Below the pieces are notes generated by a model that saw nothing but the letters and a program-made list of their open reading frames with translations, was not told where the DNA came from and made no database searches. From Caldicellulosiruptor acetigenus (GTDB lineage: Bacteria > Bacillota > Thermoanaerobacteria > Caldicellulosiruptorales > Caldicellulosiruptoraceae), in the NCBI RefSeq assembly GCF_026914305.1, contig NZ_CP113866.1, positions 752,183 through 816,182 of the forward strand: a stretch of 64,000 nucleotides of DNA, read 5' to 3'. Positions 13,925 through 60,508 of this stretch are shown one piece after another. Numbering within the stretch: position 1 is the stretch's first letter; each line of letters begins with the position of its first letter. A program made the translations under genes and the position numbers.

Positions 13925-14460
13925 ACTGGTGTTCGCTATTAGAAATGTCTCAACCTAATTGAAGGGATCTTCGTCTGTGCGTCTACAAAAAAGTTGAACT
14001 CAAAGCCCAAAACAGACACAGGACAAACCCTGAAACCATTGTGGTGTCTGCATTTTGCCACAGCAGGCAAACCTGAAAAGAGCTTTTGAGCCGGGGAAAA
14101 AGACAGCACAATTGCAAATGACACATAGAAACACTTTGGAAACGCTTTCAGAAAAGAAAGTAAGAAAGCAACAATCTTCACCACGTTCAAGCTGGCTTGA
14201 AAGCTCTTTGCAGGCTTGGGTAGTGTCTCAAAACCCTTGAAAACACTGACTTTGTGAAACTTCCCTGAGTCCGGGAAGGGCTTTTGCTGTGGCTACTGGG
14301 TGTGAAAACAGGCAAAAAGGCAGGGAAAATACTTGTAAACGATTACATAGGAGTGGAACAAGAAAAAGCTGTGCTGATAGCAGGCAGACTGGCTTGAAAG
14401 CTCAAACACAATCTGCACCAGTAGCTAAAACTTTTGAAATTTCTGATTTTTAAACCAGGG
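13925..14460 (+). repeat. R1 noncoding repeat, copy A
   Basis: No credible gene lies between 13823 and 14536. The stretch aligns by eye with 18010-18435 and 22060-22440: TGTTCGCTATTAGAAATG, then AGGCAAACCTGAAAAGAGC, TTGTAAACGATTACA (14333-14347) and GCTTGAAAGCTCAAACACA. An internal part is duplicated. GCTCAAA/TTTGAGC-type complementary blocks suggest an RNA or DNA secondary structure. Confidence 0.65.
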
Positions 14461-14791: not shown

Positions 14792-15122
14792 CCACCTTGG
14801 GCTATATGAGTAGACCAGGGCAAGGGCGTACTGTCAGAAGAATGTTAATCTGCCGTGAGAAACATACATGTATACTAGAAATTAGCCATAGCCAACTGGT
14901 GTTCGTCATTAGAAATGGTTAAATTCAATGGCGAAGAAACTTGCAAATGTGTGTGTGGGAAACCTGATCAAGAGCTCAAATCAGGCATGTGGTGTATTAC
15001 AAATCCATGGCTTCAGAACTGTTGCGAAGATCTGAAAATCGATGTGTGGTAAAAACAATTAGAAAACCTGAGTTCAAAACCTGATTACAGAAATGTAGAA
15101 ATGGGAATCAAGCTGCAAAACG
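14792..15122 (+). repeat. R1 noncoding repeat, copy E (rearranged)
   Basis: Contains the R1 blocks GGTGTTCGTCATTAGAAATG (14899), GAGCTCAAATCAGGCA, and the tail from CAGAACTGTTGCGAAG to AAGCTGCAAAAC. It lacks the central palindrome block. No gene is seen in it. Confidence 0.6.
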
Positions 15123-15237
15123 AAAGCTGTGACTTTTACTTTTTTGTAGCATAATTGGTTGTTTTCGTGGTATAATTAAATTGTAAGGTATATTGCTCCC
15201 CTCTTGGGAGTATGCAGGAAGGGGGGAGTTTTGCAAC

Positions 15238-17965: not shown

Positions 17966-18053
17966 TTTTTTCATTGTTAAACCAGTTTTTAGCTTTACTG
18001 AAACTAATTCTAATGCCAACAGGTGTTCGCTATTAGGAATGATCAAATCTTAG
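16275..18053 (+). CDS. IS1182-family DDE transposase, copy 1
   Basis: The frame runs 592 residues from GTG 16275 (ATG in copy 2), behind a GAGGTGAT site. It reads out of the element's right end, so the last ~30 residues are host sequence. Catalytic residues appear as LDGTKVEANANKYSF (D), VIADSGYGSEENY (D) and VETVFGIIKNNKGFRRF (E). A CEEICNGCEHREKC cysteine cluster lies before the last motif. It cuts and rejoins the IS ends. The frame is intact, so it may be active. Confidence 0.88.
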   Translation: MARKHDKVVFKNYNPYQYLMPIDPEAFIPQNHLVRVIDKIIDKIDISTVMEKYKGGGTSSYHPLMLLKVLIYAYIQGIYSSRKIARALRENITFMWLSKYQAPDFRTINRFRKEILGDAIENIFAEVVKLLIELGYVNFDYYYLDGTKVEANANKYSFVWAKSTKTFEKKLREKVKNTLGEIERINEEEDKALGDLDVKLEADYDSKQLEEKIEQINQRLEEAEFKSKRKEKRVKKLVKVLKNDCVFRLKKYENYETILNGRNSFSKTDNDATFMRMKDDHMKNGMLKPGYNVQIGTQNRFVIGFSIHQSPTDTVCLKEHLEAVKKMTGFTPKNVIADSGYGSEENYLHLKECGINSYIKYNTFDLEQTRRFKKDIFNVKNWEYIAEEDAYICPAGKKVKYLYPKISVNERGFVSYEKVYQCEEICNGCEHREKCYKGRRWKKRFSVRPRLEKLKEEVRQRLLSEEGKEIYNKRKVEVETVFGIIKNNKGFRRFLLRGLKGVKLEWGLVCIAYNIEKLAKIMIEGWGKTVAQPSFCLLYNLILVFNTTKRSFLVIKNYCFGTAPFFIVKPVFSFTETNSNANRCSLLGMIKS

Positions 18054-18435
18054 TTGTGAAGGATCGATATCCCCTAACTGTGTTTGAGGATAAGGAACAA
18101 AGAATGATCAAATCTTAGTTGTGAAGGATCACGCAAATACGCCTACGAAAAAACTGGATCAAAAGCTCAAACCAGACACAGAAGTAGCGCAAAAACACAG
18201 ATAACTACTGGGGTTGCAGGTAGTGGGCAAATCCGGGAAGGGCTTTTGAGCTATGGTAGGGTGCCAGAATAGGCAACAAGGAGGAAAGGGAGATTGTAAA
18301 CGATTACATAAGGATGCGACAGAAAAAAGTCATGTCAGCTACAAAACAGCTGGTTCGAAAGCCTAACCAGAACCTGTACTAGCAGTCAAAACCCTTGAAA
18401 ATTCTGGTTTCAAATTGTGTTGCAAATTTCAAAAG
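18010..18435 (+). repeat. R1 noncoding repeat, copy B
   Basis: Begins with GGTGTTCGCTATTAGGAATG and has a short tandem duplication (GAATGATCAAATCTTAGTTG occurs at 18036 and 18102). The shared palindrome TGTAAACGATTACA lies at 18295-18308, and the tail ends near TTCAAATTGTGTTGC. There is no gene between the IS and 18890 apart from the RNA described next. Confidence 0.6.
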
Positions 18436-18574
18436 TTGAGTGTATAATAAAACTGTCAGGAACAGTGTATGAAAAATATGTCTACGAAAATGTAAAAATA
18501 AGAAATATGTTTTCAAATTAAGCTAAGAAGGGTATAATAAAAGTAGAGGATTTTTAGAATACTCATGGAAGAGA

Positions 18575-18745
18575 GCAAGTAAGGTGTGGTATGCACTTTA
18601 AAAGCATACCGGGCTGTGGCAGCAAGCCTCTCCCTAGCTTCGGGACGTAAAATATAGAAGCGCAGTGGGGCTTTTCCTTCGTGTTGGCGCCCTGCTGCCT
18701 AGGGATGAGAAATTCATCCCGAAAACAAAACACGAAAGTGTATTT
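18575..18745 (+). ncRNA. Structured RNA upstream of the Abi_2 gene (abiF-RNA-like)
   Basis: Two clean hairpins are visible: GGTATGC/GCATACC (18588-18594 with 18604-18610, 9-base loop) and GGGATGA/TCATCCC (18702-18708 with 18714-18720, 5-base loop). The GC-rich part between them has TCCCTAG (18631-18637), complementary to CTAGGGA (18699-18705), and GCAGTGGGGC facing GCCCTGCTGC, so a pseudoknot is possible. The region is far more GC-rich than its surroundings. From established knowledge, an 'abiF' RNA motif is found upstream of Abi_2/AbiF genes. Assignment here is by position and structure, not by alignment. Confidence 0.6.
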
Positions 18746-18813
18746 TTTACCAATAAAAGTAATAATAAATATTGACTTGGCAATCGAAAAGATTTAGAAT
18801 AAAAGTAACAGAG

Positions 18814-18876
18814 CTCACCACGCCTCTTGGTTGGCAGAAAGCCAGCCAATGCGGACCAGGGTGAGACTTTTTTATT
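18814..18876 (+). terminator. Terminator between the structured RNA and the Abi_2 gene
   Basis: Inner arms 18827-18835 and 18841-18849 form a 9-bp stem with a 5-base loop. Outer arms CTCACC (18814-18819) and GGTGAG (18860-18865) extend it, and ACTTTTTTATTT follows. It ends 14 bases before the Abi_2 start, so most transcripts would stop after the RNA and only readthrough would express the protein. Confidence 0.75.
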
Positions 18877-18889
18877 TAGAGGGATAAAA

Positions 18890-19780
18890 ATGTCAATAGA
18901 GGAGTTAAAACCTGCTCTTAGTGTGGAGGAACAAATAAAACTTTTAAACTCAAAAGGTTTAATAATTAAAGATATAGAATTCGCCATGCAAGTTCTGTCG
19001 AAAATTAGTTATTACAGGCTTAGTGGATACTGGCATTCCTTTTTGCGAAAAGATAACAAGTTTGAACACTTCGCAGGAAACATTTCTTTTGAAGATATAT
19101 ATCACATATATAGGTTCGACCAAAAGTTAAGACATATAATTTTCGAAGTAATAGAGGAAATTGAAATAACATTCCGGACAAAAGTGGTAAACTACTTTGC
19201 TTGTACATATGGTCCATTAAAGTATAAAGAACCAGAATACTTTGAAAATGCAGAATATCATAAGGAGTTTCTAAATGAAATTGAAAAAGCTATCAAAGAG
19301 CAAGAAAACAAGGAACAGTTTGTGCGGCATTATTTGAATAAATATAGCGGTGAGTTTCCCATCTGGGTAGTTGCAGAGATTCTATCCTTCGGCAGTATGT
19401 CCAAGTTTTATTCCAATCTTAAAAAAGACGATAGAGACAAAATTTCAAAAGAGTGGACTGGTTTTCCTTCGGAATACTTAAAAAGTTGGCTCAAAAGCTT
19501 GGTACTGGTGAGAAATTTATGTGCTCATTACAGGAGATTATACAGACAAACTTTTGCTTTTCCACCAAAACTGAGCAAGAAACAAAGAACGACTATAGGA
19601 AACAACAACTCATTATTTGCAATTTGCTTTGTTATGAAATATATGCTTGAGTCTTCAACGTGGGAGAATTTTATAACAAATCTGGAGGCACTTTTTGAAG
19701 AATACGAAGAAAAGAAAGTGGATATTTCTCTTATAGGTTTTCCAAATAACTGGCTTAAAATTTTTCGTTCATCGATATAA
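18890..19780 (+). CDS. Abi_2 (AbiD/AbiF) family HEPN protein
   Basis: 296 residues from ATG 18890 behind AGAGGG. The N-terminus SVEEQIKLLNSKGLII and ISYYRLSGYWHSF are Abi_2 signatures. RNLCAHYRRLY near residue 230 is an Rx4-6H HEPN ribonuclease motif. Abi_2 proteins of lactococci (AbiD, AbiF) block phage development. The HEPN domain is expected to cut RNA. Its layout, RNA then terminator then protein, resembles type III toxin-antitoxin loci where the RNA restrains the toxin. The frame is intact. Confidence 0.85.
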   Translation: MSIEELKPALSVEEQIKLLNSKGLIIKDIEFAMQVLSKISYYRLSGYWHSFLRKDNKFEHFAGNISFEDIYHIYRFDQKLRHIIFEVIEEIEITFRTKVVNYFACTYGPLKYKEPEYFENAEYHKEFLNEIEKAIKEQENKEQFVRHYLNKYSGEFPIWVVAEILSFGSMSKFYSNLKKDDRDKISKEWTGFPSEYLKSWLKSLVLVRNLCAHYRRLYRQTFAFPPKLSKKQRTTIGNNNSLFAICFVMKYMLESSTWENFITNLEALFEEYEEKKVDISLIGFPNNWLKIFRSSI

Positions 19781-22059: not shown

Positions 22060-22440
22060 CTGATACAGTAATAGCTAACTGATATTTGATATTAGAAATA
22101 GTGAAACAAAAGCTCAAATCAGGCACGTGTCATGTTGCAAAGCCATTGATAGTCATGGTTTTGCAGGTAACAGGCAAACCTGAAAAGAGCTTTTGAGGCA
22201 GTGTAGAAACAGCGACATAGACAAGAAGATGGGAGGAAGTGTTGTAAACGATTACACCAAATTGCAAAGCTAAAATTCTACTTGGGTGTGCAAAAGCCAG
22301 CCTGAAAGCTCAAACAAGCCTCTTAGCAGTACTTGAAAACATTGAGAATGCTTGTTTCAAAACTGTTGCGAAAGCCTGAAAATTGAGGTATAAGGTATAA
22401 GAAAAACAATTAAAGAAACTGTATTCATAACTGTTTAAAG
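22060..22440 (+). repeat. R1 noncoding repeat, copy C
   Basis: Blocks ATTAGAAATAGTG, AAAGCTCAAATCAGGCA, ACAGGCAAACCTGAAAAGAG, TGTAAACGATTACA (22243-22256), CTGAAAGCTCAAAC and TTCAAAACTGTTGCGAA appear in the same order as in copies A and B. This is the most compact copy and follows directly on an antitoxin relic. Confidence 0.65.
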
Positions 22441-22453
22441 AAATGTAAAAATA

Positions 22454-22501
22454 AAAAGCAAACACGCCACATACAAAAAACTCTGTGGCTTTTGCTTTTT
22501 T
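22454..22501 (+). terminator. Intrinsic terminator
   Basis: GCCACA (22466-22471) pairs with TGTGGC (22484-22489), extended by AAAAGCAA/TTGCTTTT, and is followed by a T run. A TGGTATAAT promoter box for the next gene lies 25 bases on. Confidence 0.65.
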
Positions 22502-22589
22502 GTAGCATAAAGGATATTGGTTTGTGGTATAATCAAATCAAGAGTATGGTAAGAATACAAGCAAAAAAAGAGAGGAGCAACTCCCAAAG

Positions 22590-23243
22590 TTGAGAAAACT
22601 GAGAGTATACTTAGACACATCAATCATAAACCATTTAGAACAACAACAGGACAATCCAGAATATATGCAAATAACAAAGGAATTTTGGAAACAAATAGAA
22701 AAAGAAAAATACAGCGTATATATTTCGGATATCGTAATAACTGAGATAAATAAGTGTTCTGAACCAAAAAGAAGTAAACTCTTTGAATATCTAAATGGAA
22801 TACAGTACGAAAAAATTGCCGTGGACGAACATGTAATGGAACTTGCAGAAAGGTATATTGACGCAGGAATAATTCCAGCAAGGTTTTCTGATGATGCGAT
22901 TCATATAGCTGTGGCAAGTGTCAAAGATTGTGAGATATTGGTATCATGGAACTTTAAACGCATTGTTAAACTGAAGACAATTCAGGGTGTAAACGGAATA
23001 AATAAGTTAATGGGTTATAGAGAAATCCAACTGGTATCACCGCTTATGATGTTAGAAGAAGAAGTGATTGATAGGTTTGAAACGAGTGATATGAAAGAAT
23101 TACATGAGATAAGGGAGAAAATTTACGAGGAAACAAAAAATATGACACGAAAAGAATTTATTGAATACATTCGCAAAAAGGCAAAGAAAGCCGAAGAAGA
23201 GATGAAAAAGCTGGCTGAAAAATCCAGGGGAAAAGTTAATTAA
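22590..23243 (+). CDS. PIN-domain toxin fused to an antitoxin-like tail
   Basis: 217 residues from TTG 22590 behind GAGAGGAG. The PIN fold is clear: RVYLDTSIINHL (first Asp), ISDIVITEI (Glu), ARFSDDAIHIAVAS (Asp pair) and ILVSWNFKRIV. The domain normally ends near residue 165. It then continues in frame into MKELHEIREKIYEETKNMT and a charged helix. In related loci that segment is the start of a separate small partner gene, as the relic at 6682 also suggests. The fusion may hold the ribonuclease inactive in cis. Function of the fusion is inference. Confidence 0.7.
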   Translation: MRKLRVYLDTSIINHLEQQQDNPEYMQITKEFWKQIEKEKYSVYISDIVITEINKCSEPKRSKLFEYLNGIQYEKIAVDEHVMELAERYIDAGIIPARFSDDAIHIAVASVKDCEILVSWNFKRIVKLKTIQGVNGINKLMGYREIQLVSPLMMLEEEVIDRFETSDMKELHEIREKIYEETKNMTRKEFIEYIRKKAKKAEEEMKKLAEKSRGKVN

Positions 23244-60324: not shown

Positions 60325-60508
60325 TGAAAAGATGGCATCGACAAGATTGTCGAGCCATACTTTAATAGACTTCTTAATAATGATTTAAACTAATAAAACT
60401 GAAAAATTAAAAAGCTGCCCTGATTTTTAAAGAACAGGGACTGCATATGAACCTGAAAACAAAATTTCTTCAAGCGAAGGAAAGGCAGACTCTGTTCTGC
60501 CTTTTTTA
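60325..60508 (+). ncRNA. Structured leader with terminator before the pan operon
   Basis: Three hairpins in order: ATGGC/GCCAT with TCGAC/GTCGA and one bulged A (60332-60358), CCCTG/CAGGG (around 60418-60438), and a 9-bp intrinsic terminator 60481-60489 with 60496-60504 plus a T run. The layout is that of an attenuator or riboswitch. A 'pan' RNA motif is known upstream of panB in Firmicutes; I cannot confirm that this is one. Confidence 0.5.

What the first reader, a model, noticed from the sequence alone, without database searches (positions are those of the whole stretch)
18575..19780. Structured RNA, terminator and HEPN Abi_2 gene laid out like a type III toxin-antitoxin locus
A GC-rich, hairpin-rich RNA is followed by a strong terminator that ends 14 bases before the Abi_2 start. 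This layout makes abundant RNA and little protein, as in ToxIN-type modules. A conserved 'abiF' RNA upstream of such genes has been described; whether it restrains the HEPN nuclease here is untested.
Basis: partly seen in the sequence, partly recalled or inferred. Interest (0 to 1): 0.7.

Follow-up and report, generated by a model that had tools for sequence, protein, structure and literature searches.

The report
AbiF toxin-antitoxin plus orphan structured RNA

Summary
The locus holds two RNA units, not one. (1) The "terminator" just before Abi_2 is a ~66-nt RNA (18808-18873) with its own promoter. It has the abiF RNA (RF03085) core and aligns to that model end to end, but scores only 13.7 bits because its apical loop is 16 nt longer. 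Relatives without the insert reach the threshold, and the core stem shows compensatory changes in 6 of 9 pairs. Abi_2 (296 aa, RNLCAH motif) matches the solved AbiF-RNA complex 8vz6 (E 7.5e-36). This is an AbiF/AbiD type III-like toxin-antitoxin, a known kind. It is a genus-restricted RNA that in two relatives sits upstream of a terminator and a PBECR4 nuclease gene; here that gene is gone. Following PBECR4 outward, 26 of 32 Rfam "drum" RNAs (RF02958, no function found in the papers I could read) lie 52-185 nt upstream of a PBECR4 gene and 5 more sit by a PBECR4 remnant. Other PBECR4 genes carry ToxI-like tandem-repeat RNAs. I infer an undescribed family of RNA-PBECR4 toxin-antitoxins. No toxicity, binding or transcript was tested.

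The parts
18510..18538 (+). promoter-like site for RNA A (TTTTCA-17-TATAAT)
   Evidence: the -10 region is shared with RNA A copies in G001 and G004
18545..18749 (+). RNA A: GC-rich structured RNA, orphan copy; in two relatives it precedes a terminator and a PBECR4 nuclease gene. Ends in a small hairpin plus T-run (18731-18748). 5' end approximate
18645..18738 (+). proposed pseudoknot of RNA A: CCUUCGUGUU in a hairpin loop with AACACGAAGG at the 3' end (10 bp in relatives, one pair lost here); arm positions approximate
   Evidence: only one compensatory pair in the whole RNA, so weakly supported
18772..18800 (+). promoter-like site for the abiF RNA (TTGACT-17-TAGAAT)
   Evidence: -10-like sequence at the same distance before AACAGA in many relatives
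18808..18873 (+). RNA B: abiF RNA (RF03085-type) that also forms the intrinsic terminator; core stem 18814-18819/18860-18865, inner stem 18821-18823/18851-18853, T-run 18868-18873
18827..18849 (+). apical hairpin (TTGGTTGGC-AGAAA-GCCAGCCAA) that lengthens the canonical 11-nt loop by 16 nt; also present in the genus copies in G003 and at G000:855030
18890..19780 (+). Abi_2 / AbiD-AbiF group HEPN toxin, 296 aa; R208-N-L-C-A-H213 motif at about 19511-19528
   Evidence: Pfam 2.9e-56; PADLOC AbiD 6.6e-98; 8vz6 7.5e-36, RNLCAH over RNSCCH

Best explanation
The Abi_2 gene and the 66-nt RNA directly before it are an AbiF/AbiD type III-like toxin-antitoxin module. The RNA is made from its own promoter. 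Its abiF hairpin is also the transcription terminator, so most transcripts are antitoxin RNA and rare read-through makes toxin mRNA. The RNA then binds and inhibits the HEPN RNase; loss of the RNA, for example when a phage shuts host transcription, would free the RNase and stop growth. The larger RNA upstream (18545-18749) is a separate unit: the leftover RNA partner of a PBECR4 nuclease module whose toxin gene is missing here. Shown: the two units, abiF homology, Abi_2 identity, RNA A next to PBECR4 in relatives, absence of PBECR4 from this genome. Inferred: transcription, termination, toxicity, RNA binding, phage defence, and that RNA A is an antitoxin.
For: AbiF part: Abi_2, AbiD, 8vz6 with aligned catalytic motif. 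Relatives' RNAs at the same place reach the RF03085 threshold (L053, L055, L058, phiC2 L051); the window copy aligns end to end. In 37 sequences all stem cells but one are standard pairs, with compensatory changes in 6 of 9 pairs. An RNA-only scan found the motif before intact Abi_2 in 9 of 24 places and before broken or fragmentary Abi_2 in 4 more. Experimental precedent in PMC12373285. RNA A part: 96-97% copies in G001 and G004, 91% in G003; PBECR4 directly downstream in G004 and G003 (Pfam 1e-15) with a terminator between; no PBECR4 in this genome. Window and G004 share 18159-18749, then diverge exactly after RNA A.
Against: The window abiF copy scores far below the Rfam threshold (13.7 against 37 bits). 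11 of 24 abiF RNAs have no Abi_2 nearby, so RNA presence alone does not prove a working module. RNA A is not an Rfam drum RNA, has one compensatory pair in four sequences (137 of 500 shuffles as good), and is next to PBECR4 in only two of five copies. No transcript or toxicity data.
Confidence: 0.77

Rival explanations
1. RNA A (18545-18749) is a second, active regulator or antitoxin of this Abi_2, the two RNAs forming one composite control region.
For: RNA A lies upstream on the same strand, its end some 60 bases before RNA B starts, and structured leaders of Abi_2 genes are known (AbiD1; cited in PMC12373285).
Against: RNA A is found without Abi_2 in G001, G003 and G004, and in two of them before PBECR4. 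The abiF-Abi_2 unit is found without RNA A in G003 and many other taxa. A promoter-like site and a T-run separate them.
Confidence: 0.1
2. The short RNA acts only in cis, as a terminator or attenuator that a phage signal can open, and does not bind the toxin.
For: The hairpin is a strong terminator, and the C. difficile RNA also lowers toxin transcription (17-fold rise on deletion, PMC12373285). A phage protein activates AbiD1 through its 5'UTR (cited in PMC12373285).
Against: The most conserved letters are internal-loop bases (GGACCAG, ACGC) rather than only the stem, which fits protein recognition. RCd22 works in trans and binds AbiF (PMC12373285).
Confidence: 0.12
3. RNA A has nothing to do with PBECR4: it is a mobile or housekeeping RNA that landed by chance before two PBECR4 genes.
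For: Only two associations within one genus; RNA A sits among dispersed repeats; no copies outside the genus.
Against: Both PBECR4 genes of the genus have it. PBECR4 genes elsewhere are also preceded by RNAs (drum, tandem repeats). RNA A of G003 is 91-94% identical to the other copies, while the G003 and G004 proteins are 76% identical.
Confidence: 0.2

Closest known systems
AbiF-RCd22 of Clostridioides difficile (Abi_2 HEPN toxin with RNA antitoxin; PMC12373285)
   Same: Abi_2 protein with RNxCAH motif, abiF-motif RNA directly upstream, one promoter, terminator before the gene.
   Different: RCd22 carries two abiF motifs and a separate terminator hairpin. Here there is one motif with a longer apical hairpin that is itself the terminator.
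PbAbiF-AbiFr (PDB 8vz6; described in PMC12737573)
   Same: Homologous protein over residues 7-288 (E 7.5e-36); one RNA per monomer expected.
   Different: I did not compare the PbAbiFr sequence; about a quarter to a third of residues look identical in the alignment (estimate by eye).
abiF RNA, Rfam RF03085
   Same: Core stem, A bulge, CGC/GCG inner stem and loop sequence CUCU; end-to-end alignment.
   Different: 16-nt longer apical loop drops the score to 13.7 bits.
drum RNA, Rfam RF02958, with PBECR4 (PF18813)
   Same: Promoter, structured RNA, terminator, PBECR4 ORF: the layout of RNA A in G003 and G004. Shares short motifs (GGGYU...AGCC, UAG, GAxxUAAA; by eye).
   Different: RNA A is not hit by RF02958 at E up to 5; homology unproven.
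ToxIN / CptIN / TenpIN type III toxin-antitoxins
   Same: RNA antitoxin, terminator, then RNase gene; several PBECR4 loci have tandem-repeat RNAs as ToxI does.
   Different: Toxins here are HEPN (Abi_2) and BECR-fold (PBECR4) by family assignment; the abiF RNA is a single non-repeated unit.

Membership tests
AbiF/AbiD type III-like toxin-antitoxin | Abi_2 HEPN protein with R-x4-H RNase motif | tested here: met
   Pfam 2.9e-56, PADLOC AbiD 6.6e-98, RNLCAH over RNSCCH of 8vz6
AbiF/AbiD type III-like toxin-antitoxin | abiF-motif RNA directly upstream on the same strand | tested here: met
   End-to-end RF03085 alignment but sub-threshold (13.7 bits); relatives over threshold; core conserved with compensatory changes
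AbiF/AbiD type III-like toxin-antitoxin | terminator between RNA and toxin start | tested here: met
   hairpin 18814-18865 plus six T ending 16 bases before the ATG; the simple scanner missed it, probably because the hairpin is interrupted by internal loops
AbiF/AbiD type III-like toxin-antitoxin | protein toxic alone, RNA binds and neutralises it | not testable with these tools
   shown only for relatives (PMC12373285)
abiF RNA, Rfam RF03085 | score at or above gathering threshold (37 bits) | tested here: not met
   13.7 bits; so not an RF03085 member by Rfam's own rule, though homologous through intermediates L053, L055, L058
drum RNA, Rfam RF02958 (for RNA A) | covariance-model match | tested here: not met
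   no hit at E up to 5 in 18050-19000
type III toxin-antitoxin of the ToxIN kind (for RNA A-PBECR4) | structured RNA, terminator, nuclease gene in that order | tested here: met
   in relatives G003 and G004; in the window the nuclease gene is missing
type III toxin-antitoxin of the ToxIN kind (for RNA A-PBECR4) | tandem-repeat antitoxin RNA | tested here: not met
   RNA A shows no tandem repeat on inspection of its sequence; some other PBECR4 loci have one

The most novel reading that the evidence does not exclude
PBECR4 (a BECR-fold nuclease family) is the toxin of an undescribed, widespread class of type III-like toxin-antitoxins whose antitoxins are several unrelated-looking RNAs: the Rfam drum RNA (no function described in the papers I could read), two-unit tandem-repeat RNAs, and the genus-specific RNA A. 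The window keeps RNA A after losing its toxin, next to an intact AbiF module.
Probability: 0.6. Interest if true: 0.78.

Novelty: new variant of a known kind. Interest (0 to 1): 0.58.

Why it matters
The Abi_2 part adds a single-motif AbiF module whose antitoxin hairpin doubles as the terminator, and shows that a longer apical loop hides abiF RNAs from Rfam. The larger point is the link found while explaining the other RNA: drum RNA, which has no function in the papers I could read, is almost always followed by a PBECR4 nuclease gene or its remnant. That makes its role directly testable as an RNA antitoxin and would add a toxin fold family to RNA-controlled toxin-antitoxins.

Tried and rejected
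Rfam gathering and lax scans of RNA A: no family. RNA A in viral contigs (one 19-base core pattern): none. RNA A in 398 genomes of the phylum: only the genus, plus short 19-32-base matches at E 0.002-0.01 that I take as chance. Matches of 18547-18577 in G032 and G036 lie in coding sequence with an open frame reading FEYSWKRA, rejected as unrelated. G004-type PBECR4 by tblastn in phages and plasmids: none; in viral contigs: none. Folding energy upstream of PBECR4 genes is not better than upstream of control genes (mean z -1.58 against -1.36, p 0.11); pseudoknots are invisible to that test, but it is a negative result. Own model built from drum hits had only 6 pairs and was not used. abiF-like motif in lactococcal phage sk1, which carries an AbiF-protecting region (title cited in PMC12737573): none found with a simple scan. 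GC-rich matches to the abiF pattern (L017, L025, L027, L030, L033-L035, L037, L039, L045, L050) were judged chance: no T-run and no Abi_2.

Full report
What is there. The stretch before the Abi_2 gene contains two RNA-like units, not one RNA and a terminator. Unit A runs from about 18545 to 18749, has a promoter-like site at 18510-18538 and ends in a small hairpin with six T (18731-18748). Unit B runs from about 18808 to 18873, has its own promoter-like site at 18772-18800, and ends in a hairpin plus six T, 16 bases before the ATG at 18890. The two units occur separately in relatives of the same genus: A at 96-97% identity in G001 and G004 and 91% in G003, B at 89% elsewhere in G003. Unit B folds much better than shuffled sequence (z -4.1, 0 of 200), unit A moderately (z -2.4).

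Unit B is an abiF RNA. The Rfam model RF03085 gives no gathering hit in the window, and none at E up to 5 in 18050-19000. Restricted to 91 bases it aligns end to end at 18814-18866 with 13.7 bits against a threshold of 37. The reason is visible: the apical loop is 27 nt instead of 11 and holds an extra hairpin. Relatives without it, directly before Abi_2 genes in Metabacillus, Exiguobacterium and Phyllobacterium plasmids and in C. difficile phage phiC2, reach the threshold. Over 37 sequences, all stem cells but one are standard pairs and six of nine pairs show changes on both sides. Conserved unpaired letters (GGACCAG, ACGC) suggest a protein-binding surface (inference).

The Abi_2 protein is a full-length AbiD/AbiF-group HEPN protein. 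It aligns over residues 7-288 to the solved AbiF-RNA complex 8vz6 at E 7.5e-36, with RNLCAH over RNSCCH. In C. difficile the homologous RNA RCd22 terminates early, binds AbiF and neutralises its toxicity in cis and in trans; mutating the R and H abolishes toxicity (PMC12373285). PMC12737573 summarises the PbAbiF-AbiFr structure as a type III toxin-antitoxin related to Cas13. So the Abi_2-RNA B pair is a new member of a known kind, with one abiF motif that also serves as the terminator. Toxicity and neutralisation here are inferred.

The association was tested without using the protein. A pattern for the abiF core found 26 RNA-like places (6 viral contigs, 20 genome contigs), 24 of them with at least 500 bases downstream. 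Nine precede an intact Abi_2, four a broken or fragmentary one, and eleven none. Orphan abiF RNAs are thus common, including in phage-like contigs.

Unit A is something else. In G004 and G003 it is followed by a terminator hairpin and a PBECR4 nuclease gene (PF18813, E 1e-15 and 1e-14). The window and G004 share 18159-18749 and diverge exactly after unit A: there the terminator and PBECR4, here the abiF RNA and Abi_2. This genome has no PBECR4. Unit A is also orphaned in G001, and a 53-base fragment exists in G004. It was not found outside the genus. A structure with a 10-bp pseudoknot fits 99.4% of cells, but only one pair shows a compensatory change among four sequences, so the structure is weakly supported.

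Is PBECR4 generally an RNA-controlled nuclease? The first two distant PBECR4 loci examined carried the Rfam drum RNA (RF02958) upstream, and 14 of 40 further ones did. In reverse, 32 drum RNAs were found in two orders. 26 are followed on the same strand by a PBECR4 match after 52-185 nt (20 of 25 tabulated; six of seven from the coordinates). Five of the other six sit beside a PBECR4 remnant: L122, L127 and L130, L148, and L123 through its similarity to L122. Only L139 has an unrelated gene. RNA kept after toxin loss is what an antitoxin predicts. Nine other PBECR4 genes have two tandem 33-57-nt repeats upstream, eight of them with a 50-57-nt unit, recalling ToxI. A terminator-like hairpin lies upstream of 31 of 48 PBECR4 genes against 10 of 40 control ORFs (p 2e-4). 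Folding-energy z-scores did not differ (p 0.11).

I therefore infer that drum and the other RNAs are antitoxins of PBECR4, whose fold class was predicted to be an RNase (PMC5512222), and that unit A is the orphaned partner of such a module. No PBECR4 is shown toxic, and unit A is not itself a drum RNA by model. The papers held that mention RF02958 do not link it to a gene in the passages I read; the original description was not available, so priority is unverified.

Verdict on the finding. The layout observation is right and the type III analogy is right, but the wrong RNA was named. The ordinary part is an AbiF module.

Noticed in passing
L120-L144 and L145-L151 (drum loci in two orders of Bacillota): Rfam drum RNA (RF02958) is followed by a PBECR4 nuclease gene in 26 of 32 cases and by a PBECR4 remnant in 5 more, suggesting drum is an RNA antitoxin.
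   Followed up: yes
L069, L071, L076, L079, L085, L099, L100, L102, L104 upstream of PBECR4: Two tandem repeats, 50-57 nt in eight loci and 33 nt in L085, followed by a terminator-like hairpin in most, then the PBECR4 ORF: a ToxI-like layout.
   Followed up: partly
L014:1130-1161 (-), L016:4645-4676 (+): abiF RNAs in viral contigs without an Abi_2 gene; L014 lies beside a phage lysis module. Possible leftover antitoxins or decoys against AbiF.
   Followed up: partly
L007:1464-1524, i.e. G000:C1 about 855030: Second abiF-like RNA in the same genome with a similar apical extension, no Abi_2 and no T-run; looks degenerate.
   Followed up: partly
L005 / L010 / L013 (G003) and L011 (G001): Abi_2 homologs of the genus are broken: frame-shifted in G003, C-terminal fragment in G001.
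   Followed up: no
window 14062-14445, 15052-15154, 18159-18500, 22101-22535: Dispersed, diverged repeat (67-85% identity to copies in other genomes) that lies upstream of several genes, including RNA A.
   Followed up: no
window 60329-60447: pan motif RNA (RF01749), 41.9 bits, above its threshold.
   Followed up: no
window 22590-23243: 217-aa ORF starting MRKLRVYLDTSIINHLEQQ that looks PIN-like (by eye) but has no Pfam or PADLOC match.
   Followed up: no
L071:2378-2425 (-): DUF3800-XI RNA (RF02975) some 250-300 bases upstream of a PBECR4 gene on the same strand; another described RNA near a putative nuclease.
   Followed up: no
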